Part shown: positions 39,258 to 53,074 of the stretch, in pieces | Layout: every line of letters begins with the position of its first letter | Numbering within the stretch: the stretch's first letter is position 1 | Assembly (NCBI RefSeq): GCF_001482385.1 | Contig: NZ_CP013611.1 | Span: 62,001-126,000, forward strand | Length of the DNA stretch: 64,000 nucleotides | From: Pseudoalteromonas rubra | GTDB lineage: Bacteria > Pseudomonadota > Gammaproteobacteria > Enterobacterales > Alteromonadaceae | Direction of reading: 5' to 3' | Program-made: the position numbers and the translations under genes | The notes under the pieces: generated by a model | What the model was told of the DNA's origin: nothing | Databases searched by the model: none | What the model saw: only the letters and a program-made list of their open reading frames with translations

Positions 39258-39333
39258 GCGAGTATAGCTCAGCTGGTAGAGCGCAACCTTGCCAAGGTTG
39301 AGGTCACGAGTTCGAACCTCGTTACTCGCTCCA
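39258..39333 (+). tRNA. tRNA-Gly (anticodon GCC), copy 1
   Basis: 76 bases with encoded CCA. Acceptor GCGAGTA/TACTCGC, D loop AGCTCAGCTGGTAGAGC, anticodon loop TTGCCAA giving GCC, T arm GTTCGAAC. First gene of the array. Confidence 0.98.
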
Positions 39334-39364
39334 AATTCTCTTTTCTGACTTAGTCAGTTAGTGT

Positions 39365-39438
39365 GGCGGAATGGCAGAGTGGCCATGCAGCGGATTGCAA
39401 ATCCGTCTACCTCGGTTCGACTCCGGGTTCCGCCTCCA
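39365..39438 (+). tRNA. tRNA-Cys (anticodon GCA), copy 1
   Basis: 74 bases with encoded CCA. Acceptor GGCGGAA/TTCCGCC, anticodon loop TTGCAAA giving GCA between GGA/TCC arms, and T arm GGTTCGACTCC. Confidence 0.97.
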
Positions 39439-39475
39439 TTTTCTCAACAAACTCCACATGCGAAAGCAGCCCGAT

Positions 39476-39562
39476 GCCCGGGTGGTGGAATTGGTAGACA
39501 CAAGGGATTTAAAATCCCTCGCTGGTAACAGCGTGCCGGTTCAAGTCCGGCCCCGGGCACCA
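39476..39562 (+). tRNA. tRNA-Leu (anticodon TAA), copy 1
   Basis: 87 bases with encoded CCA; class II with a long variable arm. Acceptor GCCCGGG/CCCGGGC, anticodon loop TTTAAAA giving TAA, T arm GGTTCAAGTCC. Confidence 0.97.
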
Positions 39563-39651
39563 TTGTTTAGAGTGCTTTAACTCAAATAGTTAAATAGGAA
39601 AATGCACACTGCATAATCCATTATTACTAATAAGTTAAAAGCTACAGGAAC

Positions 39652-39727
39652 GCGAGTATAGCTCAGCTGGTAGAGCGCAACCTTGCCAAGGTTGAGGTCA
39701 CGAGTTCGAACCTCGTTACTCGCTCCA
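39652..39727 (+). tRNA. tRNA-Gly (anticodon GCC), copy 2
   Basis: Identical over its 76 bases to copy 1 at 39258, including the encoded CCA and the GCC anticodon. Confidence 0.98.
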
Positions 39728-39759
39728 ATTTAAACAATGAATGCTCTAGCAAACCCGAT

Positions 39760-39846
39760 GCCCGGGTGGTGGAATTGGTAGACACAAGGGATTTAAAATC
39801 CCTCGCTGGTAACAGCGTGCCGGTTCAAGTCCGGCCCCGGGCACCA
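39760..39846 (+). tRNA. tRNA-Leu (anticodon TAA), copy 2
   Basis: Identical over its 87 bases to copy 1 at 39476. The preceding GCAAACCCGAT leader is similar to that of copy 1, suggesting a duplication unit. Confidence 0.97.
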
Positions 39847-39937
39847 TTGTTACTCACAGCTTAGTCGCTTGATATGACAGTAAGATTAAGTTAAAGTGGC
39901 GATGATAAAATGCTAAGTATTAGTTCAAATCTAATCA

Positions 39938-40057
39938 AAAAAGCAACATGGAACGCGAGTATAGCTCAGCTGGATGAATGAAAAAGACGCAACCTTGTAT
40001 CTTACATTTACCGACTAAGTTAAAAAGCAACATGGAACGCGAGTATAGCTCAGCTGG
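39938..40057 (+). repeat. 36-base direct repeat covering a tRNA-Gly 5' end
   Basis: The 36 bases at 39938-39973 and at 40022-40057 are identical, offset by 84. They begin AAAAAGCAACATGG and run to the D loop of tRNA-Gly. The first copy ends in the truncated gene and the second in the intact one, so an unequal exchange or replication slip probably made the remnant. Confidence 0.85.
39955..39996 (+). pseudogene. Truncated tRNA-Gly remnant
   Basis: Bases 39955-39973 equal the first 19 bases of tRNA-Gly; then 15 unrelated bases (ATGAATGAAAAAGAC) replace the end of the D arm, and GCAACCTTG (39988-39996) matches the anticodon region before identity ends. The T arm, 3' acceptor and CCA are missing, so it cannot fold as a tRNA. 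Confidence 0.85.
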
Positions 40058-40114
40058 TAGAGCGCAACCTTGCCAAGGTTGAGGTCACGAGTTCGAACCT
40101 CGTTACTCGCTCCA
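40039..40114 (+). tRNA. tRNA-Gly (anticodon GCC), copy 3
   Basis: Full 76-base copy identical to the other tRNA-Gly genes, with encoded CCA. Confidence 0.98.
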
Positions 40115-40147
40115 ATCTTTCTGATACATTAAGTATCAATACAATGC

Positions 40148-40221
40148 GGCGGAATGGCAGAGTGGCCATGCAGCGGATTGCAAATCCGTCTACCTCGGTT
40201 CGACTCCGGGTTCCGCCTCCA
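40148..40221 (+). tRNA. tRNA-Cys (anticodon GCA), copy 2
   Basis: Identical over its 74 bases to the copy at 39365. Last tRNA of the array; 24 bases separate it from the end of the convergent LPP20-type gene. Confidence 0.97.
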
Positions 40222-40244: not shown

Positions 40245-41333
40245 TTATTTTTCCAATAACCAGACATAAATCACCGGCACATCATTTTTGTACTGAATTT
40301 TCAGGTCAATCAACTCACCGCTGACATGTTCGTTGATGGTAAACTCGCTGCTTTCGAGCAGGTAGTGCCCTTTGTGTTGTGTTACTGCAACTTGCGTCTC
40401 TATCGTGATCCCTTTGTTCTTTGCAAGCTCGATCAGCGCATCCTGAATGGCGAGCCTGATGGCTGTGCTGAGCAGGTTATCTGAGGTCATAGTGCCATCT
40501 TCACCAAAGGCCCCCAATACAAGCTTGCCCTGTTGCGTCATGTCATTAATATCTGGCAGCACTGGCGCATTGAGCACAGCCTGGTCTACGGGCTTATACT
40601 GGCCTATCAGCGTTGAACCATATTGACAGCTTTGATGTAAAGCCAGGCGTGTGGGCGTGCCCCGGGCATCGACTTCACCGTTGCGATTGTAGTTCACCTC
40701 ATGGTGTACGTTTCCTTGATAGCTGATAGCCCGCTGTTTTAGATATTCTTTGGCATTGACCTGGGCCTGCATCAGAAAGCTCGCGACGGTCGTTGCGTTG
40801 CGTTCGCTAATCTGGAGCTGCTCATGCGGCGACGCGGTATAGTAACTGACACCCAGGACCTGGCTGTGCGTATCATTGTCGCATAGCCAGGCAAGCTGAC
40901 ACTGCACAAAATCACATTGGCGAACAGCACAGGTAGCACTGGTTTTCAGTGGCTCGAAGCTGACGTAACTGTATTGTGTATCTTCGGTGTTAAAGGGCGT
41001 AGAATAATAGACTGTGTGGCCTGAGGATAAAGCTTGCATGGGTTGATCATGTGTGACGTTTTGCACATCACGGCGTTGCAATTGAATATTGTAGTAGGCT
41101 GCGAGTTTCTTCAGTGCCCGGGTGCGACTGGCCAGCTCCGAACCATTGGGGGTAGCACTGAGTGGGGCTGCGGTGCCGACAAAGCCAAGTTGATTGGCTT
41201 GTTTTGGAGACTGAACCCAGCAGGGCAATGTGCTTTCTTTCGGGGCTTGGGGGAGCTGAGAGCGCATTTTACAGCCACTGAGTACCAGGGTTCCAAGCAG
41301 CAGGCTACAAAGCAGAGGTGAGTGAACAGTCAT
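40245..41333 (-). CDS. LPP20-family lipoprotein
   Basis: The 362-residue protein has a signal peptide with lipobox LSGC (Cys21). The first 150 residues hold a typical LPP20-type start: a Trp-Val near CWVQSP, a GFVGTA stretch, and a helical ARxxALKKLAAYYNIQ segment; a related half follows from about 190. The gene is the last of the operon led by the HlyD-type adaptor, starting only 18 bases after the histidine kinase. Such proteins are often outer-membrane lipoproteins. It may be cargo or an accessory of the exporter; that is inference. GGACAAGGA precedes the ATG. Confidence 0.82.
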   Translation of the reverse strand: MTVHSPLLCSLLLGTLVLSGCKMRSQLPQAPKESTLPCWVQSPKQANQLGFVGTAAPLSATPNGSELASRTRALKKLAAYYNIQLQRRDVQNVTHDQPMQALSSGHTVYYSTPFNTEDTQYSYVSFEPLKTSATCAVRQCDFVQCQLAWLCDNDTHSQVLGVSYYTASPHEQLQISERNATTVASFLMQAQVNAKEYLKQRAISYQGNVHHEVNYNRNGEVDARGTPTRLALHQSCQYGSTLIGQYKPVDQAVLNAPVLPDINDMTQQGKLVLGAFGEDGTMTSDNLLSTAIRLAIQDALIELAKNKGITIETQVAVTQHKGHYLLESSEFTINEHVSGELIDLKIQYKNDVPVIYVWLLEK

Positions 41334-41351
41334 TCCTTGTCCTATATTGGG

Positions 41352-42686
41352 TTAGTGGGGGTTTTCCCTTAAAGGTAAATCGAATTCTACCATCAGGCCA
41401 CCCTTTTCTCGGTTGCGTAACCTTAATTGACCCTGATGAGCCGTGATGATGTCATGACACAGGCTTAAACCCAGCCCGGTTCCTTGTGCTTTGGTTGAGT
41501 AAAAAGGTTGCAGTGCCTGATGTAAATTACCTGACAGGATCCCAGAGCCTCGATCGACAACGGCAAACCTCAGGCGTGTTTGGGATTGCACCACTCTTAC
41601 AGCGATCTCAGCCTTGTCACTCCCTGATTCATGGGCATTTTTGAGCAAATTCAGTAAAACCTGTTCAACTTGCGCAACGTCGAAGTAGCCGGTGTCCACA
41701 GGAACCGTTCCCAGCAAAGTAAAAGGGTACAGAGCCTGCAGACGTTCGAGTAGCGGTGTAATCGCATGGGCTGCGCAGCTGGGCGCTGGCAAGCGCGCAT
41801 ATTCAGCATAACGCTGGATAAACTCGCTGAGGTTATGAGCGCGTTGTGACACGGTATCCAGCATGTCTGGCAGCAGCTCAAGGTGCTTTTGCTGGCTCAA
41901 CATGGTTTGTGCCGAGCCCGTCAGCGACTGGATCGGGGCCAGCGAGTTATTCAATTCATGGCTTATCAGACGAATGGCATTTTTCCATAACATGATCTCT
42001 TCGCGGTTTTGTTCTGCAGAGACGTTTTTGCAAATGACCAGACTATGTGGCTGGTAATTCAGCGTGACAGGTTCAACTCCAAGGTAATAGGTATGTTTTT
42101 GTTCCTGTTGCTCAAAACTCAACATGCCTGTATAACCGCTATTGAGCGCCTGAGCCAGCGCTGTCGGTAAGTTATCACAAGCGATTTCCAGTGAGCTGCC
42201 TGTGAGCGCGCCTGGTTGTTTGTGCAACAACTGGCGAGCAGCGGCATTGTGATAAACAATGTGACGCTGTTTATCAAGTAACAAGGTTGCCATAGGGGAG
42301 GCCTGAACTATGCTGTCCAGTACCAGTTCTTTTTGATTCAGCTTTTGTTTTTGTTGCTTGAGGTTTGTGGTGAGCTGGTTATATAAGTCGATCAGCCTAG
42401 CCAAATCAGGATCCGGAGTCGGTGAAATGCGCAGTGACAGATCGCCATCCTTGATACTTTTGATCCCATCTTCCAGCGTGGCCAGTATGCGCTGTCGACG
42501 TCTGGTATAATGGCCCAGCAGCAAAAACAACATCATCAATGACACCAATAGGATCACTGAGCAGGCAAAGAGCACCGGAACCTGATGGTGCAGCGCAATG
42601 GCCAGTGCAAGCAGTGCACACGTAAGCACACAACCACTGCTGAGCAATATTCTGCCTGAAAAAGACCAATGTGAGGACGTGCTCAT
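41352..42686 (-). CDS. Sensor histidine kinase, NtrY-like, of the sigma54 two-component pair
   Basis: The 444-residue protein starts with two closely spaced membrane helices (about 12-30 and 34-56) and almost no periplasmic loop, then a HAMP-like helix, a PAS domain (about 115-215), the phospho-acceptor in SHELNNSLAP near residue 240, and a HATPase domain with NLLKNAHES, DRGSGI and GTGLGLSL. The short loop suggests sensing within the membrane or via the PAS domain. The start overlaps the stop of the regulator gene in ATGA, so the pair is translationally coupled. Confidence 0.93.
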   Translation of the reverse strand: MSTSSHWSFSGRILLSSGCVLTCALLALAIALHHQVPVLFACSVILLVSLMMLFLLLGHYTRRRQRILATLEDGIKSIKDGDLSLRISPTPDPDLARLIDLYNQLTTNLKQQKQKLNQKELVLDSIVQASPMATLLLDKQRHIVYHNAAARQLLHKQPGALTGSSLEIACDNLPTALAQALNSGYTGMLSFEQQEQKHTYYLGVEPVTLNYQPHSLVICKNVSAEQNREEIMLWKNAIRLISHELNNSLAPIQSLTGSAQTMLSQQKHLELLPDMLDTVSQRAHNLSEFIQRYAEYARLPAPSCAAHAITPLLERLQALYPFTLLGTVPVDTGYFDVAQVEQVLLNLLKNAHESGSDKAEIAVRVVQSQTRLRFAVVDRGSGILSGNLHQALQPFYSTKAQGTGLGLSLCHDIITAHQGQLRLRNREKGGLMVEFDLPLRENPH

Positions 42687-44014
42687 CGCTTGATCCCGAA
42701 CTTGTCCATGCGGCGGTACATGGCCTGACGACTCAATCCCAGGCTTTTTGCCGCATGGGTGACGTTACCCTGATGTTTGTCCAGTGCCTGGGTAATATCT
42801 TCGATACTAAATTCGTGATTGACCATGGTTGAGGCTGAGGTGCTCAGTCCCAGATCTGCGGCCTCAATCTGTTGTCCACTGGCAAGCAGCTCAGCCCGAC
42901 CTATGACATTTTGCAGCTCGCGAACGTTGCCCGGCCAGCTGTAGCGCTTGAGCAAACGTTGGGCACCTTCACTAAGTACTTTATCTGTGGCTAAAAAGTG
43001 TTGGGCAAGTGGAATTATGTCGTCAGGGCGCTCTGCCAGTGGTGGCAAGCGAAGCTCAATCATATTGAGCCGATAGTATAAATCTTGCCTGAATGTGCCT
43101 CGCGCTATGGCTTCATTGAGGTTGGCATTGGTTGCGCTGATCACTCTGACTTTAACTCGCTGGGTTTTACTGCTGCCAACGGCTTCGAACTCGCCGGTTT
43201 GTAGCACCCTCAATAGTTTTTGCTGGCCTGTCAGTGGCAGATTGCCAATTTCATCGAGGAACAGGGTGCCCCCATCGGCGGCAGCAAACCGGCCTTCACG
43301 ACTTTTCGTGGCCCCGGTGTACGCGCCACTGACGACACCAAACAGCTCAGCTTCAATCAGATCAGCAGGCAGTGCACCAGCATTGACGCGAATAAAGGGC
43401 TTATCCCGGTAGGCGCTATTGGCAACCAGGAGTTCTGCAATTTTCTCTTTACCTGCACCGTTGGGCCCGGTGATTAACACTTGCGCGTCGGAGTAAGCTA
43501 CCTGTGTTGCCGTTTCAAGCAGTGACAGCATAGCCTGATCGGCAAAGATCAGACCGCTGAGATCATAGTGTGCGCTCAGCTTATCTCGTTTGAGCTTGAA
43601 CTGTTTGTTGCTGCGCGTCTGGGATTGTTGTAGCTGATACATCTCCAGCAGGTTATTGACCGAACTGAGCAATTTATCATCCTGCCAGGGCTTGGCAATA
43701 TAATCTGCGGCACCGTGCTTAATTAACTCTACGGCCATTTCCAGCTGAGCCCAGGCGGTCAGCAGGATAATGGGCAGGTCCGGGTTGAGTGCTCGGATCT
43801 GGTGGTACAGGGCCTTACCCTCTTCGCCGGAGGTGGTGTCACTGGTAAAGTTCATATCCTGGATCACTAAGTCGTAATCCTGGGATTGCAGCATTGCCAG
43901 CCCTTGTTCAGGCGAGCTGGCACCTTCGCAGTCGATGTCATTTATTAAAAAAAGAATCTTAAGCGCTTTTATGACATCTGTATTGTCATCAATGACGAGA
44001 ATTTTATGTTGCAT
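42683..44014 (-). CDS. Sigma54-dependent response regulator (NtrC-type)
   Basis: The 443-residue enhancer-binding protein has a receiver domain with phospho-acceptor Asp (VIQDMNF, near residue 53) and Lys in KPW near 111, an AAA+ domain from about 150 with Walker A GPNGAGKE and the sigma54-contact loop GAYTGA (Tyr for the usual Phe), the Walker B FLDEIGNLP, and a Fis-type helix-turn-helix at 400-440. It lies 52 bases after the second permease gene and is translated with the kinase. A likely target is the sigma54 promoter in front of the operon (48687-48702). Confidence 0.95.
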   Translation of the reverse strand: MQHKILVIDDNTDVIKALKILFLINDIDCEGASSPEQGLAMLQSQDYDLVIQDMNFTSDTTSGEEGKALYHQIRALNPDLPIILLTAWAQLEMAVELIKHGAADYIAKPWQDDKLLSSVNNLLEMYQLQQSQTRSNKQFKLKRDKLSAHYDLSGLIFADQAMLSLLETATQVAYSDAQVLITGPNGAGKEKIAELLVANSAYRDKPFIRVNAGALPADLIEAELFGVVSGAYTGATKSREGRFAAADGGTLFLDEIGNLPLTGQQKLLRVLQTGEFEAVGSSKTQRVKVRVISATNANLNEAIARGTFRQDLYYRLNMIELRLPPLAERPDDIIPLAQHFLATDKVLSEGAQRLLKRYSWPGNVRELQNVIGRAELLASGQQIEAADLGLSTSASTMVNHEFSIEDITQALDKHQGNVTHAAKSLGLSRQAMYRRMDKFGIKR

Positions 44015-44066
44015 CGTGTTTTTATCGTTATTGTTGTAAATATGAAAGGGCTTCTCAGCCCTTATT

Positions 44067-45287
44067 TTAATTGGTTTTAGTAACCCTGGCCGGGGCTATA
44101 TTAGCTGCTTTACGAACAGGAATATAGACCGCAACGGCGCTGAGTAGCCAAACTGAGAGCGCAACCACCAGGGCGAGCCAGGGTTCAACCAGGCCTTGTG
44201 CGCGTAAATGGGTGACAAAATAATTGTTTAACCACAGGGCCGCGAAACTACCCAACAGAATTCCCGCCAGTGCCAGCAGGGCGTTTTCCATCAGCAGTGC
44301 CTTGAGCACAGTATGCTGACTGGCACCCAGTGCACGCAGGATCCCAATGTCTTTTTTACGGATAGAGACCGAAAAGGAAACCAATCCAATAATGCCAAAT
44401 CCGGTCACGGTAATGGCGATAACACTGATCCCTATCATAATGAATGCAAATGTACTACGGCCATCCCACAGGCGTTTTTTCGCTCTGGCGGCAAACTCAA
44501 CCCGCTCTACGATCCGTCCGTGTTGCAGATACAATTGATCTTCAACCTCCTGAAGAATGGCTTCGCTGGTGCCTTTTTTGACTCTCAGTAAGTAATTTAC
44601 ATCTGCGCTACCAAAGTGCGCCTGAGGCACGATGGTAGAGTGGTACCAGTGTTGTTCATAAACCGCATTTTCTCCCAGCATCTTATTAGCATACACGCCG
44701 ATCACTTGGTAGGGGCGACGGGCACGTTGTAAGTAGATGGTCTGACCCAGTGCACTTTGCTCGCCAAATAGCGTCTTGGCGAGGGCTTCGCTGATCAACA
44801 CGACACTCGCGTAGCGATTTTGTGAGGTTCCAGCATAAACAAACTCATTGGGGTAGAAGTCGCGTCCTTGTGTAATGTTTAATCCCAGCGTAGCTACCCC
44901 CTGTGAGGTTACGTCAAATTGGGCGTTTTCAAAGCCTGCATCATCTTCCTGGATGGTTTTATATACCAGGTTACTGCCTGCGACAGTCGCCAGTACCAGT
45001 TCATTGCTGGCGTAGGTCGCTTGAGTCACGTCAGGCAACGCGCTGAGGTTAGTTAAATCCCGTTGTATCAGGGCCGATTTATCCACCTGATTGTCGAATA
45101 CCTTAGTGTAAACGTTGAGTATCTCCACTTCGTCCAGGTGGGAGGGGATCAACCAGTTTTTGAGCGTCCCATAGCTGATAAAACTGGCGTTGCCGACTAT
45201 GGTCACCGCAATGGCAATTTGGATCAGGATCATCAAGGAAATATTGCGGTGTTTAAAGATGATTTTGAGTATATGTTTGAGTGACAT
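44067..45287 (-). CDS. ABC exporter permease, MacB/FtsX type (second)
   Basis: The 406-residue protein has one helix near residues 18-38, a large periplasmic MacB_PCD domain (about 40-270), and three helices in a C-terminal FtsX domain (about 285-400) with the conserved RKKDIGILRALGAS motif. Such permeases do not carry substrate through a channel but drive periplasmic movements (mechanotransmission). AGAGGATAAAAC is upstream of the ATG, only 4 bases after the first permease gene. The pair probably forms a heterodimer with the ATPase at 46663-47358. Confidence 0.93.
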   Translation of the reverse strand: MSLKHILKIIFKHRNISLMILIQIAIAVTIVGNASFISYGTLKNWLIPSHLDEVEILNVYTKVFDNQVDKSALIQRDLTNLSALPDVTQATYASNELVLATVAGSNLVYKTIQEDDAGFENAQFDVTSQGVATLGLNITQGRDFYPNEFVYAGTSQNRYASVVLISEALAKTLFGEQSALGQTIYLQRARRPYQVIGVYANKMLGENAVYEQHWYHSTIVPQAHFGSADVNYLLRVKKGTSEAILQEVEDQLYLQHGRIVERVEFAARAKKRLWDGRSTFAFIMIGISVIAITVTGFGIIGLVSFSVSIRKKDIGILRALGASQHTVLKALLMENALLALAGILLGSFAALWLNNYFVTHLRAQGLVEPWLALVVALSVWLLSAVAVYIPVRKAANIAPARVTKTN

Positions 45288-45291
45288 AGTT

Positions 45292-46653
45292 TTATCCTCT
45301 TAACTGTGCTGCGGGCGCGGTGCGGCTGGCTTTCACTATGGGGTAAAGCCCGGTGGTAAATATCGCCACAAAAATACCCACGGCAGCTTGCAGCGCAAAG
45401 GGTATGTCCATGCTGTACATACGGCGTACCTGCTCGGCGTCGGCCAGATAATCGGCCTGATATAAGGCTAAATGGAACATCGCAATTAAGCCAAACTGTG
45501 CCATCAGCAACCCCAAAACAATGGCGGCACTGCTGAGCATACTGAGTTCCAGCAATTGGATTTTAAGGATATAGCGTTTGTTTGCGCCCAGGGCCCTGTA
45601 CAGAGACACTAGTTTTGCCCGGCTCTGGTTTTTTGCCAGTAGAATGCCAATGGTGTTGATCAAACAGATAGCGAATAGCAGGTAGGCGAACTTAAGATAA
45701 ATTTGCTCCCAGTACAGATCGTCACTCATTTTGTCATTGAGGCTGGCCAGTTGCGTTAGGTAATAGGGGTCGGCGTGACTGAATCGACCCAGGGAGGCCT
45801 GTTGTTGTGCATAATTACGTGCCCATAAGGTCAGCTCTGCATGACTATTCTCGAGTTGTATGGGGTCTAGCATTGCCCAGCCATGCAGATACCCACATTC
45901 GGCGTTTTTAAGCCCCAGTACATCTTCGCGACGATACCGTGTTCGTGCGCCTTCTTCTTGAGTCCGGCATGGCATATAGCCAGTGCGAGGCAGGTTGTTG
46001 GCATGCGCGTAACCTAGAGGTACAACCGCCATATCATTGACCCGGCCCCGAAAACGCATATTCTGAAAGCGACGCAGGTAGGCTGAAATGTCCATGACGC
46101 CAACCACCTCTAGCTGACGGTTGTTGATCACCACCTGTTTGCCGACCGAGTTTTCTCCGCCAAATAATAGATCGTTGGCTTTTTTGTCTAACACTATCAC
46201 AGCGTCATCTTGCATCCCTTCGCGCCAGGGGGCGCCATAAATAAATGGCACCTGGAGCAATTCAAAGTAATTCGCATCAGCGGCAGAAGCTTCCGTGGTA
46301 ACTGGTCTGACACTTTTATCTGGCAGATCAAGCACAAACGAAGTAGTGTAATTAAGAGATAAACGGATCATTGGGTTTGCTTGAAAGGCCTCGGAAACGG
46401 CTTCTGCGTCCCGATAGGTCAGCGGCGGCGAGCGAAACGCCGAGCGCCTGTCAAACTCCGGGTCCATAAAGTTAAGGCTGACGTGATATACCCGATCGGC
46501 TCTTTGGTCGATAGGGGAGTGGCCGCTGCGTGTGACTATGGTACCCATAGTTAACAGCAGGGTGATCCCGATAGCCAGATTGAGTACCATCAGCAAGGTC
46601 AGTTTGCGTTTTTGTTTCAGGCCGCGCCAGGCCAGTTGCATCAAATCCTTCAT
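45292..46653 (-). CDS. ABC exporter permease, MacB/FtsX type (first)
   Basis: ATG 46653 has AGGTGA six bases before and is preferred over the GTG at 46662 that touches the ATPase stop codon. The 453-residue protein has one helix near 20-40, a large periplasmic domain to about 320, and three C-terminal helices with the SLYRALGANKRYIL motif typical of the FtsX domain. It is co-expressed with the ATPase, the second permease and the adaptor. Differs clearly from the second permease in its periplasmic domain, so the complex is likely asymmetric. Confidence 0.92.
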   Translation of the reverse strand: MKDLMQLAWRGLKQKRKLTLLMVLNLAIGITLLLTMGTIVTRSGHSPIDQRADRVYHVSLNFMDPEFDRRSAFRSPPLTYRDAEAVSEAFQANPMIRLSLNYTTSFVLDLPDKSVRPVTTEASAADANYFELLQVPFIYGAPWREGMQDDAVIVLDKKANDLLFGGENSVGKQVVINNRQLEVVGVMDISAYLRRFQNMRFRGRVNDMAVVPLGYAHANNLPRTGYMPCRTQEEGARTRYRREDVLGLKNAECGYLHGWAMLDPIQLENSHAELTLWARNYAQQQASLGRFSHADPYYLTQLASLNDKMSDDLYWEQIYLKFAYLLFAICLINTIGILLAKNQSRAKLVSLYRALGANKRYILKIQLLELSMLSSAAIVLGLLMAQFGLIAMFHLALYQADYLADAEQVRRMYSMDIPFALQAAVGIFVAIFTTGLYPIVKASRTAPAAQLRG

Positions 46654-46662
46654 CGCAGTCAC

Positions 46663-47358
46663 CTAAGAGATCAGTTCGACCAGTTCATTCTTATTTATAT
46701 CGCGCAATTGACCGTCGAGAATTTGGATATTGCGATGTGCCCGCTGTGCCAGCTCATGATCATGGGTAACCATCAGCAACGTGGTGCCCTGACGGTTTAT
46801 CTCCTCCAGCAGATCCATGACTTGTCTGGCCATCATAGTGTCCAGATTACCGGTTGGCTCGTCGGCGAGTAAAAATCGCGGTTTACCGGCAAGCGCCCGG
46901 GCAATCGCAACTCGCTGCTGCTGACCACCACTGAGTTGGGCAGGAAAGTGGCTGGCACGGCCACCCAGACCCACCAACTCCAGACTTTCCTCGATGCGTT
47001 GTTTGCGGGCTTTGGCTGACAGACCCCGGAAAATCAGAGGAACCTCGATGTTGTCATAGAGGTTGAGGTCGCCAATCAGGTTAAACCCCTGGAAAATAAA
47101 GCCAATTTTTTCATTACGAAGCTTAGAAAGTTGCTTGTCACCCAGGGTACTGACATCTTCGCCATCCAGTTCATATGTTCCTTGCTCGAAGCTTTCGAGT
47201 AACCCGGTGATATTCAGAAAGGTGGTTTTACCTGAGCCAGAGGGGCCCGTGACGGCAATAAATTCACCTTCTTCAACGTTGAAGTTAACGTCTGACAGGG
47301 CGTGTGTTTCGACCAGCTCGGTACGGTAGATTTTACTGATGTTTTTCATACGTAACAT
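46663..47358 (-). CDS. ABC exporter ATPase, LolD/MacB type
   Basis: The 231-residue ATPase has Walker A GPSGSGKT (38-45), the signature LSGGQQQR near 143, Walker [12 protein letters not shown] near 163-173, and the switch His in VTHD near 200. The sequence closely matches LolD/MacB-type ATPases that power FtsX-type permeases. The adaptor gene lies 18 bases upstream and the permease begins after its stop codon. AAGGAAC precedes the ATG. Confidence 0.96.
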   Translation of the reverse strand: MLRMKNISKIYRTELVETHALSDVNFNVEEGEFIAVTGPSGSGKTTFLNITGLLESFEQGTYELDGEDVSTLGDKQLSKLRNEKIGFIFQGFNLIGDLNLYDNIEVPLIFRGLSAKARKQRIEESLELVGLGGRASHFPAQLSGGQQQRVAIARALAGKPRFLLADEPTGNLDTMMARQVMDLLEEINRQGTTLLMVTHDHELAQRAHRNIQILDGQLRDINKNELVELIS

Positions 47359-47376
47359 GGGATGTTCCTTTTATTA

Positions 47377-48645
47377 TTATTCGCTGAGGATCACGTGCTG
47401 TGATTGCCCGAAAGCAGCCAGACTTGAGATGATGATTGTATCACCAGGTTGCAGCCCCTGGGTAATTTCCACTTCTCTGACACTTTTGACACCCAGTGAA
47501 ATAGGGGTTCTGAACGCGGAGTTTTGTTCAATTTTGTAGGCCGTGCGGGATGCACCGGTTTCCACAAAGGCACCGCGTTCTACTTTTAGTACGTTTTGCT
47601 TTTGGGCAATGATGATCTGTGCATTCACTCTTTGGTTCTGACGTAAATTGCCAGGTTGCTCGCTAAAGCGGATACGGCCGCGCACCTGGCCTTGCTCAAC
47701 TTCAGGAGAAATGGCGACTAAGGTTGCGCTGTATTGTTCGTTGTTGATTTGTACGTTGGCATGCAAACCTATTCCCAGCTCATCCGCCAGGTTTTCCGGA
47801 ATGTAGGCCTCTACTTCCAGCTCATTGAGGTTAACCAGCGACATTAACGGTGTATCTCGTTGCACATGTTGCTTTTGCTGTACATTCAGCGTGCCGACAA
47901 TACCGGATAAAGGCGAGTGCAGTGTCAGCGCCTCAACCTGACGACGCAGTTCTTCGGTAAGGTGACGCTGACGGGTCAGGTTCAGCTCGCTACTTTTTAG
48001 TTCAAAACTCAGGCGCTCCTGCGCCAGTTGCAGACTCGCGATGGCGTGGCGCTCGTTAAGTTCAGCACGCTTCAGGGCCACCTGGGTCTGTTCCAGCTCT
48101 TCTTTTGAAATGATCTGTTTTTTAATACTGGTGTTGGCACGGGCCATTTCACTTTGCGCGGCTTCCAACTCGACTTTGGCCAGTTCCATTTGCTGTGTAT
48201 TGTCCAGTTGCTGTTGTTTTATCGCTATTTTCTGACGGCTTACTTCTATCTCCAGACGTGCCAGCGTCGCCTCCTCCTGAAGGAGTTGGTTACGAAGCTC
48301 CGGGCTGTCAATGGCCAGCAGGGCCTGACCTGCTTCAATTTCGTCGCCCGCTTTGACAAACAAAGTGACTGTACCGGCTGCAATGGCATACAGGGAAGGA
48401 CTGTCTGCGGCCATAGTGCGGCCTTCAACGCGTAGATCCTGGACCATGTCGCCTCGCACAACGGTGGCAGTACGCAGTGTTTGTAAGGACACCACCTGAT
48501 CGGCACTGAGTAGCTGGTCAAAACTGCTGTATGAAGCGGTGGCGGCACCGATTAGTCCGACGGCGGCGGCTGCACCTAACCACCAGCGCGGTAATCTGCG
48601 CGTTTGTGGGATTGCTTTATCTTGTTGTTTGGTATCTCGGATCAT
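47377..48645 (-). CDS. HlyD/MacA-type periplasmic adaptor subunit
   Basis: The 422-residue protein has an N-terminal membrane helix (about residues 22-42), a biotinyl-lipoyl half (AIAAGTVTLFVKAGDEIEAGQALLAIDS near 88-115), a long coiled-coil hairpin (about 118-235), a second lipoyl half near 245-260, and a beta-barrel domain. This is the adaptor of MacAB-type tripartite pumps and would link the ABC permeases to a TolC-type channel. It is first in the seven-gene operon. AAGGAG lies 11 bases before the ATG. No outer-membrane channel gene is in the window. Confidence 0.93.
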   Translation of the reverse strand: MIRDTKQQDKAIPQTRRLPRWWLGAAAAVGLIGAATASYSSFDQLLSADQVVSLQTLRTATVVRGDMVQDLRVEGRTMAADSPSLYAIAAGTVTLFVKAGDEIEAGQALLAIDSPELRNQLLQEEATLARLEIEVSRQKIAIKQQQLDNTQQMELAKVELEAAQSEMARANTSIKKQIISKEELEQTQVALKRAELNERHAIASLQLAQERLSFELKSSELNLTRQRHLTEELRRQVEALTLHSPLSGIVGTLNVQQKQHVQRDTPLMSLVNLNELEVEAYIPENLADELGIGLHANVQINNEQYSATLVAISPEVEQGQVRGRIRFSEQPGNLRQNQRVNAQIIIAQKQNVLKVERGAFVETGASRTAYKIEQNSAFRTPISLGVKSVREVEITQGLQPGDTIIISSLAAFGQSQHVILSE

Positions 48646-48686
48646 GCCAGGTACGGCTCCTTGTTTACTCGATTACAAGTACTTAT

Positions 48687-48702
48687 TACAAAATCGATGC
48701 CA
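48687..48702 (-). promoter_or_regulatory. Candidate sigma54 (-24/-12) promoter of the exporter operon
   Basis: On the minus strand TGGCATCGATTTTGTA fits the consensus TGGCAC-N5-TTGCA with GG at the -24 position, the right 10-base spacing and TTG at -12; only the second base of the GC pair is T. It would give a transcript starting about 30 bases before the HlyD-type start codon. It fits the sigma54-dependent regulator encoded in the same operon. Confidence 0.62.
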
Positions 48703-48763
48703 GGTTTTAAGTTGTTGAAATTATGTGTTTATTTGTTGTTTGTGTTGAGCGCTGTAACAACAG

Positions 48764-48811
48764 CGGACGGACAGCGGACAGTACGCGGACAGTGGGCGAG
48801 TGTCCGGACAG
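48764..48811. promoter_or_regulatory. CGGACA repeats, candidate enhancer site of the exporter operon
   Basis: CGGACA occurs at 48768, 48775, 48786 and 48805, with a CGGACG at 48764; the last copy is part of the palindrome TGTCCGGACA (48801-48810). The block lies about 90-135 bases upstream of the predicted start of the sigma54 promoter, a proper distance for an NtrC-type enhancer, and also 110-160 bases before the divergent ATPase gene. Confidence 0.6.
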
Positions 48812-48861
48812 TATGTCACAGATGGGGAAATTGGTATGTCAGAATACACTGGCTTTGCCGA

Positions 48862-48889
48862 TTTGTTCCTGTACCATGATGACTATACT
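48862..48889 (+). promoter_or_regulatory. Candidate promoter of the YbbAP/AttH operon
   Basis: TTTGTT (48862-48867), 16 bases, then TATACT (48884-48889), about 30 bases before the ATG at 48924. It is a moderate sigma70 match. No -24/-12 element was seen on this side. Confidence 0.4.
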
Positions 48890-48923
48890 AAGTTGCTGTT
48901 AAGTAAGTGGTAATGGAGGTGCG

Positions 48924-49580
48924 ATGATCCAGTTAGATGAGATAACGTTCAGGCGTCGCGATGGCGCTGGATATCGGAATGTGCTGGACGGCCTGAGCTG
49001 GTCGGTATCGGGGGCTGAGCAGGTCGCGCTCACTGGCGACAGTGGCTCTGGCAAAACGACCTTACTTAACATACTGGCCGGGTTGCTTAGTCCAGACTCT
49101 GGCACCGTTCGTATCAACGGGCAGGCAATACATACTTTTAATGCTAAACAGTTGGCCTTGTATCGTCGTACGATTGGCATGATCTTTCAGCATTACCAGT
49201 TACTTAGCCCGCTTAACGTGGCCGATAACATGGCCTTTCAGGCCCGTCTCAACGGCCGCGCCGTAAGTCACAAAGAAATTACCATAATGGCAGAACGTCT
49301 GGGACTGGGTGACAAGCTCGATGTCTATCCTGCGCAGTTAAGCGGAGGGGAGCAGCAACGTGTCGGGATCGCACGGGCCTTACTTAATCGGCCCAGCGTA
49401 TTGCTTGCTGACGAGCCTACAGGGAATCTGGACAGCATGCGCAGTCAGGAAGTACTGGAACTGCTGATGAGCTTATGTCAGGAGCAAAAGGTAAATTTGA
49501 TCATGGTTACCCACAGCCGGGTCCTGGCTGCGCAGTTACCCCGTCAGGTGGCGTTACGTGACGGACGTTTACATGAGTGA
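48924..49580 (+). CDS. ABC transporter ATPase, YbbA/LolD type
   Basis: The 218-residue ATPase has Walker [10 protein letters not shown] near residues 39-47, signature LSGGEQQR near 137, Walker [12 protein letters not shown] near 157-167 and switch His near 194. It belongs to the group that drives FtsX-type permeases. GGAGG lies close before the ATG, and the stop overlaps the ATG of the permease by 8 bases. It starts an operon divergent from the MacAB-like exporter. Confidence 0.95.
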
Positions 49581-51987
49581 ACTGAGACTAATCCTGCTAA
49601 TTTATGCTCAGTATTATCGGCGCCACAAGGGACTGCTGGTGTTGTTTCTGATAGGTCTGAGCCTCGGCAGCGCCTTGCTCAGTGCCACACTGGGTTTAAA
49701 CCAGGAAGCCTCAAAGCGCTATCAAACCAGTACAGCGTTGTTAGCGCAGCCTGTAAGCCACTTTATTCGCCCGCCATTGGGGAAAACAGGTTTACCTTTT
49801 TCAATCTGGCAACGGCTTTCAGCGGCTGGGTTTGAGCAGGTTCACCCCGTACTGGAGGGGCGCCTCAGAAGTGACGATGATAAGCAGGTCGCCATTCGGG
49901 GTATCAATTTACTACAGTGGCAAACGGCAGGTGCTGCAAGGCCGTTATCAGGGGACGCAGGTCAGCCTCACAGCGACGCTTACTTGTTCGATACGCTGTT
50001 TATTTCACCTGAACTGACGGCCAGATTACAACTTGGAGCGTCTGCATTGCGTTTTGACGGAGAAAACTATCCGGTCAGCCTATTGGAGGGGGCTGGTCAC
50101 TATGCACTGATGGACATCAGTCTGGCAGATCGATTATTGAAGGCGCAGGGGCAGATCAGCTATTTTGAAGTGACGGGTCTGAATGCGCTTCAGCGACAGC
50201 AGCTGGTGGACATGCTTGGCAGTGCCGCACGACTGGAGTCTGCCAAGGTACAAACCTTCGATGCCCTGTCGGGGGCCTTTTTCTTTAACCTACAGGCACT
50301 GGCCTTACTGGGCTATGTGGTGGGTGCATTTTTAAGCCTCAATGCCATCAAACTTGCTTATCAAAGCCGCTTGTCCTTGCAACAGCAAATGGCCACGCTT
50401 GGTTGCCAGCGGAGTCAGTTACTTAAGGCGCTGTGTCTGGAAGTTGCGATATTGAGTGTGCTGGCAGCGACATTGGGTAATCTGCTTGGGGTGCTGATGG
50501 CCAATGCCATGATGGGTGACATCAGCACGGTATTGAGCAGTTTTTATCAGCTGGATCGGGCTCTGACAGTGCGCTTTGATGCCGTACTTGTGCTTATCGG
50601 CAGTGTGCTGAACTTGGTGATACTGGCTGGCTTTGTGGCGTTGCAAACGCGCCTGATGCAGCAATTGGCTAAGTGGCTGACGCTGGCGCTACTATCTTTG
50701 GCCTGTGTCGGAGGGTTGTTATTATTGCATCTGGCACAGACCAAATGGCAAGCCTTGCTACTGTGTGTTTGTGTTTTACTGGTGTTTTTCGCATTGACAC
50801 CGCCACTGGTGCGTCTGGTGTTTCAGGTGCGCTGGCCGACCAGGGCTCCGTTGCTCGGCTGGCTCAGGGCCGATAGTCTGACCCAATTGCCAGCGCTGCT
50901 GAGTTCGGTGTTAGCCATTTTGATGGCAGTGGGCGCAGCTATTGGCATGCAGGTGATGGTGGGGAGTTTCAGCAGTGCACTGGATGCCCACTTACAAACC
51001 CGCCTGAATGCCGATCTGTATGTCAGGCCGGATAATCCGACCGCACAGATGCGTCAGGCTTTGGCAGATATGCAAGCAGTTAAGCAGGTGGGGATTTACT
51101 GGTCGGCACAAAGTGAAGTGCAAATGGCCAATGAGACGGTGCCTGTGACATTGATGAGTTTCGGCGAAGACTATCGTTATCATCAGCATCTGACCTTGCT
51201 GAACAGGCAGCCTCTGGAGGCTGTTCACCTTAATCGGAGCAATGATAGTATCACCTGTCTTGTCAATGAGCCGGGTATGCGTCGCTATGGTCTTATCGTT
51301 GGCAGTAAGCTTGATGTGCAGCAGGGGCAACACGCTTTTCACTGTCAGATCACGGGTGTATTTTATGATTACGGTGAGCCTGGCGTGAGCCTGGTAGTCA
51401 GTAACTCAGTCATCACACAGCAGGCATTTTTGTATGAAGCGGTCGGCTTTATGTTGACATTTCATGAAGGGGTTGACTCAGAACAACTGGCAGATGTCAT
51501 TAGCCAGCGCTGGTCACTGGCCGGACATCAGTTGATCCACAATCAGGTGTTTAAGCGCTTTGCAAAGCAACTATTTAGTCAAACTTTTCTGGTAACCCAT
51601 GCATTGAATATCTGCATTATGTTGATTGCGCTATTTGGCGTTTGGGTGAGCTTTTTAACGCTCGGACGACAGCAGTTGCAGCCAATGGCCGTATTACAAA
51701 CGTTAGGGGTGACTCAGGGCCAATTATTGGTGCTGAAACTATCTCAGGCCGGGCTTATTCTCGGTCTGACCTTGTTACTGGCAGTGCCGCTGGGGATCCT
51801 GTTGGGCTGGGTATTGCTAACCTATGTGATGCCCATCGCTTTTGGCTGGAGCATGGCAATGGTACTTAGCTGGCGCGATATCTGGGGGTTCTGTGCTGTG
51901 GTGCTGTTGTTGGCTTTGGTGGTCAGTGCTATTCCTTTATTAAAACTGATCAGGCGCAATGTGGCTGATAATGTCGCACAGTTATAA
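49573..51987 (+). CDS. ABC transporter permease, YbbP-like, FtsX type with duplicated domain
   Basis: The 804-residue protein has the exact length of E. coli YbbP and a similar layout: a first helix near 15-35, a periplasmic domain to about 240, three helices (about 240-360), a middle section with four or five helices (about 375-500), a second periplasmic domain (about 500-670), and three helices at the C-terminus. YbbAP-like systems are thought to move lipids or lipoproteins from the inner membrane. It overlaps the ATPase gene and is followed by an AttH-like lipoprotein gene. The start at ATG 49573 is chosen for GGACG upstream. Confidence 0.92.
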   Translation: MSELRLILLIYAQYYRRHKGLLVLFLIGLSLGSALLSATLGLNQEASKRYQTSTALLAQPVSHFIRPPLGKTGLPFSIWQRLSAAGFEQVHPVLEGRLRSDDDKQVAIRGINLLQWQTAGAARPLSGDAGQPHSDAYLFDTLFISPELTARLQLGASALRFDGENYPVSLLEGAGHYALMDISLADRLLKAQGQISYFEVTGLNALQRQQLVDMLGSAARLESAKVQTFDALSGAFFFNLQALALLGYVVGAFLSLNAIKLAYQSRLSLQQQMATLGCQRSQLLKALCLEVAILSVLAATLGNLLGVLMANAMMGDISTVLSSFYQLDRALTVRFDAVLVLIGSVLNLVILAGFVALQTRLMQQLAKWLTLALLSLACVGGLLLLHLAQTKWQALLLCVCVLLVFFALTPPLVRLVFQVRWPTRAPLLGWLRADSLTQLPALLSSVLAILMAVGAAIGMQVMVGSFSSALDAHLQTRLNADLYVRPDNPTAQMRQALADMQAVKQVGIYWSAQSEVQMANETVPVTLMSFGEDYRYHQHLTLLNRQPLEAVHLNRSNDSITCLVNEPGMRRYGLIVGSKLDVQQGQHAFHCQITGVFYDYGEPGVSLVVSNSVITQQAFLYEAVGFMLTFHEGVDSEQLADVISQRWSLAGHQLIHNQVFKRFAKQLFSQTFLVTHALNICIMLIALFGVWVSFLTLGRQQLQPMAVLQTLGVTQGQLLVLKLSQAGLILGLTLLLAVPLGILLGWVLLTYVMPIAFGWSMAMVLSWRDIWGFCAVVLLLALVVSAIPLLKLIRRNVADNVAQL

Positions 51988-51997
51988 GGAGCTCATT

Positions 51998-53074
51998 ATG
52001 CACAGCATCAGATTGCATAGTCTTTTAATCCTGTTCATGGTAACAGGGTGTCAGCCTGCTGCGCCTGAAACTGACAATAACAATGCGGCGATGGCGGTGC
52101 TCGGTCAGACGCTGGGCACCCCAGTGGATGCCACCCATACACTGACATTTCCACGCGACCACGGTGCGCATCCAGAACAGGGGGTGGAGTGGTGGTATGT
52201 GACGGGCAATCTAACAGCGCGCGATGGCAGCCAATTTGGTATGCAGTGGACTTTGTTTCGTATTATTGACCCGGGTTTTTCAACTTTTCAGTCCTCTCCC
52301 TGGTGGGATGGACAGCTTTATTTTGCGCATTTTGCTTTGCAGGATGGCCAGACACATCAGGCGTTTGAGCGTTACGGCAGAGCCGGGCAGGTTGACGTAC
52401 AGGCAAGTCCTTTTATCGCCCGGTTAGGTGATTGGCAGTTGGCCAGCCAAGAGACGTCGTTTTTACCTTTACGATTGCAAAGTCGGGAGGCCGATTTTGG
52501 TCTGGATATTACGCTGGCAAACAGCCCTCTGGTATTGCATGGCAAACAGGGGTACAGTCAGAAAACCCAGCAAGGCCATGCCTCCTTCTACTACAGTTAC
52601 CCCTTTTTACAAGTAGCAGGCACGCTGACCTATGCAGGCAGATCATATGATGTCTCAGGTCAGGCCTGGTTAGACAGAGAATGGTCATCAGGTCTGATTG
52701 ATAGTCAGCACAGTGGCTGGGACTGGTTTAGTTTACAAGGGGAGGATCCGGGGCAAGGTGCACTGATGGCATTTTGTACCCGAGATGAAACGCAAGCCTA
52801 TGCCTATTGCAGTGCCTCAGAGATATCGCCATCTGGCAAGGTTACGGCCTACCCGTATGAAGAGGTTACTTTAACGGTGCTTAACAGGGCGCAAACCCGC
52901 AATGTAACGCATCCGATAAGCTGGCAATTACAGATACCTGGTAAAGAGGCGGTGATCATTGATGTCCTGCAGGCAGATTCTTTCAACACTTTAAGCGTCC
53001 CTTACTGGGAGGGGAGAATACGCAGTCGGGGTGGGTTTGTCGCAACGGGTTATGGTGAATTGTTTGGCTATTGA
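51998..53074 (+). CDS. AttH-like lipocalin-domain lipoprotein (CrtC-related)
   Basis: ATG 51998 is preceded by AAGGAG eight bases upstream and gives a signal with lipobox VTGC. The 358-residue protein belongs to the AttH / carotenoid 1,2-hydratase-like family: HPEQGVEWWYVTGN near residues 58-71, DREWSSG near 226, and DWFSLQ. The family forms two lipocalin-like barrels. In Agrobacterium an AttH gene lies with ABC genes attEFG, and the gene order here is similar. It could bind a lipid or other hydrophobic molecule at the membrane. It overlaps the frame of the permease end by none but starts within 11 bases of its stop. Confidence 0.88.
   Translation: MHSIRLHSLLILFMVTGCQPAAPETDNNNAAMAVLGQTLGTPVDATHTLTFPRDHGAHPEQGVEWWYVTGNLTARDGSQFGMQWTLFRIIDPGFSTFQSSPWWDGQLYFAHFALQDGQTHQAFERYGRAGQVDVQASPFIARLGDWQLASQETSFLPLRLQSREADFGLDITLANSPLVLHGKQGYSQKTQQGHASFYYSYPFLQVAGTLTYAGRSYDVSGQAWLDREWSSGLIDSQHSGWDWFSLQGEDPGQGALMAFCTRDETQAYAYCSASEISPSGKVTAYPYEEVTLTVLNRAQTRNVTHPISWQLQIPGKEAVIIDVLQADSFNTLSVPYWEGRIRSRGGFVATGYGELFGY

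What the first reader, a model, noticed from the sequence alone, without database searches (positions are those of the whole stretch)
40245..48902. Seven-gene exporter operon with its own sigma54 circuit
An HlyD-type adaptor, an ATPase, two different FtsX-type permeases, an NtrC-type regulator (GAYTGA), a histidine kinase with almost no periplasmic domain and an LPP20-type lipoprotein are arranged as one operon. The promoter region has a -24/-12 element (48687-48702) and a tract of four CGGACA repeats at the right distance for an NtrC-type enhancer. MacAB-type pumps under a dedicated sigma54 two-component system with a lipoprotein partner are not a standard arrangement known to me. I infer a signal-driven export system for a peptide, lipoprotein or lipid.
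Basis: partly seen in the sequence, partly recalled or inferred. Interest (0 to 1): 0.75.

Follow-up and report, generated by a model that had tools for sequence, protein, structure and literature searches.

The report
Sigma54-controlled exporter and peptidase circuit
A marine bacterium carries a membrane pump whose own sensor and regulator appear to switch on both the pump and a distant peptide-cutting enzyme through the same short DNA sites, which looks like a defence against harmful peptides built from different parts than the known ones.

Summary
In Pseudoalteromonas (P. rubra-like) the operon encodes a HlyD-type adaptor, ATPase, two MacB/FtsX-type permeases, NtrC-type regulator (RR), histidine kinase (HK) and lipoprotein. 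Its TGTCCG (=CGGACA) repeats and -24/-12 element are conserved: at least two half-sites precede the adaptor gene in 58 of 58 exporters linked to this RR subfamily, in several genera, and in 0 of 11 unlinked exporters. All 58 RRs share an SRQ recognition-helix start. The HKs have almost no periplasmic domain. New here: the same operator plus a -24/-12-like element lies upstream of an unlinked S41 peptidase in 9 of 9 close orthologues and 0 of 20 distant homologues. A genus-wide scan for the operator core found 43 sites: 34 exporter promoters, 8 S41 promoters, 1 stray copy.

Best reading: an autoregulated two-component/exporter/peptidase module, analogous to Gram-positive BceRS-BceAB and NSR-NsrFP-NsrRK but sigma54-driven. 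The circuit is well supported comparatively; the peptide-defence role is inferred. The lipoprotein is an optional, lineage-specific addition and "LPP20" is unproven. No expression or binding data exist.

The parts
47377..48645 (-). HLYD: HlyD/MacA-type periplasmic adaptor, 422 aa
   Evidence: Pfam HlyD_3, HlyD_D23; NCBIfam RND_mfp above cut-off
46663..47358 (-). ATP: MacB/LolD/FtsE-type ABC ATPase, 231 aa; GPSGSGKT, LSGGQ and LLADEPT present
   Evidence: Pfam ABC_tran; best NCBIfam DarD 266.7 bits, below its cut-off of 375; motifs
45292..46662 (-). PERM1: MacB-type permease, 456 aa, resembles the N-terminal half of ADOP duplicated permeases
   Evidence: Pfam MacB_PCD + FtsX; TIGR03434 profile positions 6-400, 100 bits, below cut-off
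44067..45287 (-). PERM2: MacB-type permease, 406 aa, resembles the C-terminal half of ADOP duplicated permeases
   Evidence: Pfam FtsX + MacB_PCD; TIGR03434 profile positions 413-799, 157 bits, below cut-off
42683..44014 (-). RR: NtrC-type response regulator, GAYTGA, recognition helix SRQAMYRR
   Evidence: Pfam Response_reg, Sigma54_activat, HTH_8; motifs
41352..42686 (-). HK: histidine kinase with two hydrophobic cores about 11 residues apart, PAS, HELNN, HATPase_c
   Evidence: topology; motifs
40245..41333 (-). LPO: lipoprotein (lipobox LSGC, Cys21); family seen in Pseudoalteromonas; optional component
   Evidence: no Pfam/NCBIfam family; 27 of 108 genus genomes, one of them a fragment; N-terminal domain weakly FlgT-N/Lpp20-like
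48687..48702 (-). -24/-12 (sigma54-type) element TGGCATCGATTTTGTA
   Evidence: counterpart in orthologues
48768..48810 (-). operator tract: TGTCCG half-sites (CGGACA on + strand), including the palindrome TGTCCGGACA at 48801-48810

Best explanation
The operon is an autoregulated stress-response module. A histidine kinase that lacks a periplasmic sensor domain sits beside a MacB-type exporter (adaptor + ATPase + two split permeases with periplasmic core domains) and most likely reads the state of that exporter rather than a ligand of its own (inferred). When a membrane-active or envelope-targeting peptide engages the exporter (inferred), the kinase phosphorylates the NtrC-type regulator, which binds TGTCCG half-sites (strong comparative evidence, not shown biochemically) and, through sigma54 at a -24/-12 element about 50-120 bp away, raises transcription of the exporter operon itself and, in the P. 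rubra group and one further genome, of an unlinked S41-family peptidase with an N-terminal hydrophobic segment (shared operator shown). Exporter and peptidase together clear the peptide (inferred). It works like BceRS-BceAB and NSR-NsrFP-NsrRK but uses a tripartite-pump adaptor and a sigma54 activator. The lipoprotein is an addition to the operon in two lineages; its role is unknown, perhaps an outer-membrane accessory.
For: Operator: at least 2 half-sites in 300 bp upstream of the adaptor gene in 58 of 58 RR-linked loci (mean 4.33, range 2-7; background about 0.08 per 300 bp) and none in 11 of 11 unlinked exporters; TGTCCG is the best of all hexamers over 19 representatives (19 of 19 with two or more copies). 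A -24/-12-like site scores p<0.05 against 200 first-order Markov sequences in 51 of 58 linked and 0 of 11 unlinked, with half-sites upstream of it in 58 of 58. Recognition helix begins SRQ in 58 of 58 linked RRs but in none of five other sigma54-type RRs of the same genome. One rpoN match in the genome. S41 peptidase: PF03572 E 2.7e-16; operator + -24/-12-like site in 9 of 9 orthologues of at least 58% identity, all in exporter-bearing genomes, and two or more half-sites in 0 of 20 homologues of 45% or less. Genus scan of the operator core: 43 places in 35 of 108 genomes, all accounted for; reversed-pattern control 0 in 108. HK: at most 19 residues between hydrophobic cores in 56 of 58. Bce/Nsr parallels read in passages of PMC5985334, PMC7951975, PMC5786555. 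Lysobacter operons carry a DUF885 gene between PERM2 and RR.
Against: No expression, binding or phenotype data; the substrate is unknown. The S41 protein did not match the streptococcal NSR in the PDB sequence search at E 0.01; the only two hits were tail-specific proteases. Only 9 of the 36 exporter-bearing genomes showed an operator at an S41 gene, and 5 of the 20 operator-free S41 homologues lie in exporter-bearing genomes (G025, G029, G030, G031, G032), so the peptidase is not universal. In the own genome a long divergent frame covers the S41 operator, though it is open for 108 codons or fewer in the 8 other orthologues. The -12 box in most Pseudoalteromonas exporter promoters is TTGT/TTGA rather than TTGC; 7 of 58 linked promoters, five of them L038-type paralogues, did not reach p<0.05. 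The HK has a PAS fold, so the input could be cytoplasmic. The Shewanella HK (L140) has a roughly 90-residue insert. The 58 loci are related to each other, and the 11 unlinked ones fall into few families, so counts are not independent.
Confidence: 0.55

Rival explanations
1. The module exports a self-made product (peptide, siderophore-like or signalling molecule); the co-regulated S41 peptidase trims the exported precursor, and the kinase senses product or export load.
For: The ATPase is closest to the darobactin exporter DarD model, though below cut-off; S41 peptidases can act as processing enzymes (recalled); MacB homologues export protein-like signals and siderophores (passages of PMC5985334).
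Against: None of the neighbours read looks biosynthetic: uvrC- and pgsA-like genes (named by recall), tRNAs, a YbbAP/CrtC-like operon, ADC, FeoB and SNF2 proteins; no cluster-finding tool was run. In the P. luteoviolacea-type loci the window's flanking genes were not found in the stretch. The only recurrent trans site found is at an S41 gene, not a precursor.
Confidence: 0.25
2. An envelope-maintenance system: the exporter extracts lipids, lipoproteins or misfolded periplasmic material, and the S41 peptidase is an envelope protease of the same stress response; the lipoprotein is a cargo or partner.
For: Related type VII transporters LolCDE and YbbAP handle lipoproteins or hydrophobic compounds (PMC5985334 passages; PMC12646458 title and abstract start in a search listing); the lipoprotein ends the operon in 21 loci.
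Against: The lipoprotein is absent from 12 of 36 exporter-bearing genomes and is operator-free where unlinked; an HlyD-type adaptor points to a pump across both membranes.
Confidence: 0.15
3. The kinase input is cytoplasmic, through its PAS domain, and independent of the exporter; the circuit responds to a metabolic or redox cue and the exporter/peptidase pair is only an output.
For: A PAS fold is detected in the HK; NtrB-type kinases can sense cytoplasmic signals (recalled).
Against: Linkage to an exporter and the near absence of a periplasmic domain across genera fit exporter-coupled sensing at least as well; the loci were, however, collected through exporter or RR searches, so linkage is partly by choice.
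Confidence: 0.2

Closest known systems
BceRS-BceAB and GraRS-VraFG (Gram-positive peptide sensing/detoxification modules)
   Same: FtsX/MacB-related ABC transporter adjacent to a two-component system whose kinase has two TM helices and a very short external loop, the two working together (passages of PMC5985334, PMC7951975)
   Different: Here the regulator is an NtrC-type sigma54 activator, the permease is two separate MacB-type proteins, and a HlyD-type adaptor is present; the kinase has a PAS fold
NSR-NsrFP-NsrRK of Streptococcus agalactiae
   Same: Bce-type transporter + two-component system + membrane-associated serine protease that inactivates a peptide antibiotic (passages of PMC5786555); the protease is S41 family (recalled)
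   Different: Protease gene is unlinked here and joined by a shared operator; sigma54 control; no sequence match to NSR found in the PDB search
MacAB-TolC
   Same: HlyD/MacA-type adaptor, MacB_PCD/FtsX permease domains, ABC ATPase
   Different: ATPase and two unequal permeases are separate proteins; no outer-membrane channel gene in the operon (TolC-family matches lie elsewhere in the genome); E. coli/Salmonella macAB is under PhoPQ (PMC5985334 passage)
ADOP family duplicated permeases (TIGR03434)
   Same: PERM1 and PERM2 align to the two halves of the profile
   Different: Split into two genes, both far below the family cut-off of 622.3 bits
Darobactin exporter DarC/DarD
   Same: Best-scoring named model for the ATPase; adaptor weakly similar
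   Different: Both below curated cut-offs; no darobactin gene search was run

Membership tests
sigma54-dependent two-component regulation | RR with receiver, AAA+ with GAFTGA-type loop and Fis-type HTH | tested here: met
   GA[FY]TGA found in all 58 linked RRs
sigma54-dependent two-component regulation | -24 GG / -12 GC promoter element | tested here: inconclusive
   GG of -24 present; -12 reads TTGT/TTGA in most Pseudoalteromonas exporters, mostly TGC in other genera and CTGC or GTGC in 8 of 9 S41 promoters
sigma54-dependent two-component regulation | loss of expression without rpoN or the RR | not testable with these tools
   needs mutants; one rpoN match is present
Bce-type sensing module | kinase with two TM helices and very short external loop, next to an FtsX-type ABC transporter | tested here: met
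   19 residues or fewer between hydrophobic cores in 56 of 58; linkage
Bce-type sensing module | BceB-type permease with ten TM helices and one large extracellular domain | tested here: not met
   two separate MacB_PCD/FtsX proteins of 456 and 406 aa
Bce-type sensing module | transporter required for signalling; induction by peptide antibiotics | not testable with these tools
   needs genetics
MacAB tripartite pump | MacB: ATPase fused to the permease | tested here: not met
   separate genes; MacB model NF007826 far below cut-off
MacAB tripartite pump | periplasmic adaptor of the HlyD/MacA kind | tested here: met
LPP20 lipoprotein family (PF02169) | match to the LPP20 profile | tested here: not met
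   no Pfam hit for the window protein up to E 10; the three own-genome LPP20 matches are at other places
LPP20 lipoprotein family (PF02169) | Lpp20-like fold | tested here: inconclusive
S41 peptidase (unlinked target) | PF03572 domain above cut-off with conserved D-G-H and T-x-S-S motifs | tested here: met
   60 bits against 24; MADGHLS and TGPLTYSS conserved in 9 of 9; catalytic role of these residues recalled, not tested

The most novel reading that the evidence does not exclude
A recurrent but, as far as my searches show, undescribed Gram-negative counterpart of Bce/Nsr peptide-resistance modules: a sensorless kinase reads the working state of a split MacB-type exporter and drives, via a sigma54 activator bound to TGTCCG repeats, both the exporter and a peptidase encoded elsewhere, so that flux sensing, export and degradation of a peptide form one circuit.
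Probability: 0.35. Interest if true: 0.8.

Novelty: new variant of a known kind. Interest (0 to 1): 0.6.

Why it matters
It gives a concrete operator (TGTCCG repeats), a regulator subfamily (SRQ recognition helix) and two target types that can be tested at once, and it offers a route into how Gram-negative bacteria might sense membrane-active peptides through an exporter instead of a sensor domain. How the permease passes its signal to the kinase is not settled even in Gram-positive models (a PMC7951975 passage says the mechanistic basis is not completely defined). The operator rule also lets further members of the circuit be found in other genomes by a simple search.

Tried and rejected
LPP20 as a membership claim: rejected on sequence, left open on fold.

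A trans-operator on the unlinked lipoprotein gene: looked for in 6 loci (L094-L099; L099 is a fragment), none found.

Other trans targets in the own genome: besides the window, the paralogous exporter and the S41 gene, 4 direct-pair and 2 inverted-pair places remained, all inside long reading frames; judged chance. By the same mechanical test the S41 site also falls within the longest form of a divergent frame (L234:4888-6366, no Pfam family); I keep it as a promoter because that frame is short in the 8 other orthologues (108 codons or fewer) while the operator and a -24/-12-like site are kept in 9 of 9.

A darobactin-type or MacB-proper identity: below curated cut-offs.

S41 homologues near exporters: tblastn of the S41 protein (E 1e-3) against the exporter loci listed gave no hit.

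Literature: ten searches listed no paper, by title and abstract start, on a MacB-type exporter with its own sigma54 two-component system; none of the 15 papers listed (of 136) held the string TGTCCG. This covers an open-licence library only, and capped listings at that. Of three papers I read passages only.

Caveats on counts: 'linked' means an RR match over 350 bits on the same strand within 15 kb downstream. L148 is counted as unlinked because its contig ends inside PERM1; it has four half-sites at -443 to -404 and may belong with the linked class. In one search, before the distance limit was widened, L206 was wrongly scored unlinked (12 unlinked, one with 7 sites); one search supersedes it. 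Four upstream pairs are over 90% identical. The -24/-12 consensus and weights are recalled. Of 34 S41 matches, 29 were tested (one fragment and four without a locus were not); for partial matches the start was placed by alignment. The core sites were assigned by position; the G070 exporter and the stray G044 copy were read. In one search two HKs (L147, L154) were read in a wrong frame; one search replaces it. In one search the L227 row is a scoring artefact (second core taken in the PAS region), and L140 is a real insertion.
Full report
WHAT IS THERE. The window lies on contig C1 of a 5.9-Mb Pseudoalteromonas genome in 3 contigs (positions 62001-126000); the closest named protein for the lipoprotein is from P. 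rubra, 93% identical. Seven genes run on the minus strand from 48645 to 40245 with gaps or overlaps of 18, 0, 4, 52, -4 and 18 bp. Pfam assigns adaptor, ATPase, two MacB_PCD/FtsX permeases, NtrC-type RR and PAS/HATPase kinase. PERM1 and PERM2 align to the N- and C-terminal halves of the ADOP duplicated-permease model, well below its cut-off, so the pair looks like a split, unequal MacB-type dimer. The lipoprotein has a lipobox-like LSGC but no family.

THE ARRANGEMENT IS RECURRENT. tblastn of the operon proteins on loci from named genomes shows adaptor-ATPase-permease-permease-RR-HK in Pseudoalteromonas, Shewanella, Ferrimonas, Lysobacter, Stenotrophomonas and a Cellvibrionales bin. In a class-wide draw, 8 of 369 genomes (6 of 272 genera, own genome included) hold an RR this close, E at most 1e-125, and the 7 others carry the exporter next to it. 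In the genus, 36 of 108 genomes have a PERM1 orthologue at E 1e-60. The own genome holds a second exporter with a 56%-identical RR (L038) and further loci with an ATPase and adaptor-like gene beside a more distant sigma54-type RR and HK (L039, L042, L043, L045).

THE OPERATOR. Upstream regions of the 21 P. rubra/P. luteoviolacea-group operons have diverged, yet TGTCCGCGTACTGTCCG[CG]TGTCCGTCC is exact in 21 of 21. Over the loci at hand, the 300 bp before the adaptor gene hold at least two TGTCCG half-sites in 58 of 58 RR-linked cases (mean 4.33) against about 0.08 expected from the rest of the loci, and none in 11 of 11 exporters without a linked RR (L148 among the 11 is cut off by its contig end). 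Ranking all hexamers without choosing a motif first puts TGTCCG on top (19 of 19 representatives). In other genera and in the paralogue the half-sites often form dyads such as TGTCCGCGGACA (L133, L140, L154) or TGTCCGTCCGGACGGACA (L165, L167, L177); in the window they are mostly direct repeats plus one TGTCCGGACA. A -24/-12-like element follows at a mean tract-to-element distance of 53-121 bp in 58 of 58 and scores p<0.05 against Markov sequences in 51 of 58, 0 of 11 in the unlinked set. All 58 linked RRs start their recognition helix with SRQ; five other sigma54-type RRs from the same genome do not. Three of those five sit with exporters whose promoters have a -24/-12-like site but no TGTCCG in 300 bp (L039, L042, L043); L045 has one half-site before its RR gene and none before its exporter, L044 none. 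Together this supports RR-TGTCCG recognition; binding itself is not shown.

THE SECOND TARGET. In the own genome, close half-site pairs occur at this promoter, the paralogous exporter promoter, one site on contig C2 and six places inside long reading frames. The C2 site carries ACTGTCCGCTGTCCGTCCG followed by TGGTATGTAAACTGCA; its two half-sites start 130 and 123 bp before a 476-aa protein with an N-terminal hydrophobic segment (by eye) and a Peptidase_S41 domain. In this genome a divergent 493-aa frame without a Pfam family would cover the operator if its first start codon were used; in the 8 other orthologues that frame is open for 108 codons or fewer. Nine orthologues of at least 58% identity, all in genomes with the exporter, have two or more half-sites and a -24/-12-like element there; 20 homologues of 45% identity or less have none (18) or one (2), five of these 20 being in exporter-bearing genomes. 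MADGHLS and TGPLTYSS are conserved in 9 of 9. A genus-wide exact scan for TGTCCGNTGTCCGTCC found 43 places in 35 of 108 genomes and none for the reversed control: 33 lie 2.1-2.25 kb before a PERM1 match and 8 lie 116-167 bp before an S41 match; of the other two, the one in G070 is the promoter of a decayed exporter operon and the one in G044 a copy of an exporter promoter fragment near a transposase-like gene. Three exporter genomes, G040-G042, have looser operators of two or three half-sites.

THE KINASE. A hydropathy script puts at most 19 residues between the two hydrophobic cores in 56 of 58 linked HKs; L140 (Shewanella) has a real Pro-rich insert of about 90 residues, and L227 was mis-scored, its relatives L218-L226 having 7-12. 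This is the layout described for intramembrane-sensing kinases such as BceS and GraS (passages of PMC7951975).

HOW IT MOST LIKELY WORKS. Shown by comparison: one operator, one RR subfamily, two target types, and autoregulation implied by the operator lying in front of the RR's own operon. Inferred: that the exporter is the sensor, that the signal is a peptide, that the S41 enzyme degrades it. The inference rests on known relatives: BceAB works with a two-component system to sense and remove peptide antibiotics (passages of PMC5985334), and the S. agalactiae Nsr system adds a membrane-associated serine protease that cuts nisin (passages of PMC5786555; its S41 membership is recalled). Lysobacter operons carry a DUF885 protein between PERM2 and RR (five loci by reading, three tested by Pfam); DUF885 proteins look like metallopeptidases (recalled), which would be a second peptidase link. 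Against it: no sequence match of the S41 protein to NSR in the PDB search, and only 9 of 36 exporter genomes show the S41 operator.

VERDICT. A real, conserved sigma54-type circuit with a newly found trans target. I file it as a new variant of a known kind: it works like Bce/Nsr modules but is not a member of them by architecture.

Noticed in passing
window 48924-53074 (+): Divergent neighbour operon: LolD/YbbA-like ATPase, an FtsX-type permease of about 800 aa (YbbP-like, name recalled) and a CrtC/lipocalin protein; adjacent in the P. rubra-type loci but not found in the P. luteoviolacea-type stretches.
   Followed up: partly
window 39258-40221: tRNA cluster with repeated Gly, Cys and Leu genes and what looks like a broken tRNA-Gly start at about 39951-39990.
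   Followed up: no
L131 (Dyella mobilis) and L206 (G280): Arrays of several PERM1/PERM2 pairs in tandem before the RR gene: six pairs in L131, four in L206.
   Followed up: no
L147, L157, L165 (also L167, L177): Lysobacter exporter operons hold a DUF885 protein between PERM2 and RR; a DUF885 gene also lies next to the unlinked lipoprotein gene in L098.
   Followed up: partly
L297 (G070:C57): A decayed exporter operon: operator and adaptor kept, PERM1 truncated and only the end of RR left.
   Followed up: partly
L296 (G044:C1:4143564): A stray copy of the exporter promoter fragment beside a gene resembling an IS110-type transposase (name recalled).
   Followed up: partly
L039, L042, L043, L045 (own genome): Further exporter-like loci beside a sigma54-type RR and an HK with short hydrophobic spacing; three of their promoters have a -24/-12-like site but no TGTCCG, so presumably another, unidentified operator.
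   Followed up: partly
L130 and L133, upstream of the paralogous exporter: Two similar small proteins of about 120-145 aa with signal-like N-termini in tandem near the paralogous exporter; no Pfam family for the L038 counterpart.
   Followed up: no
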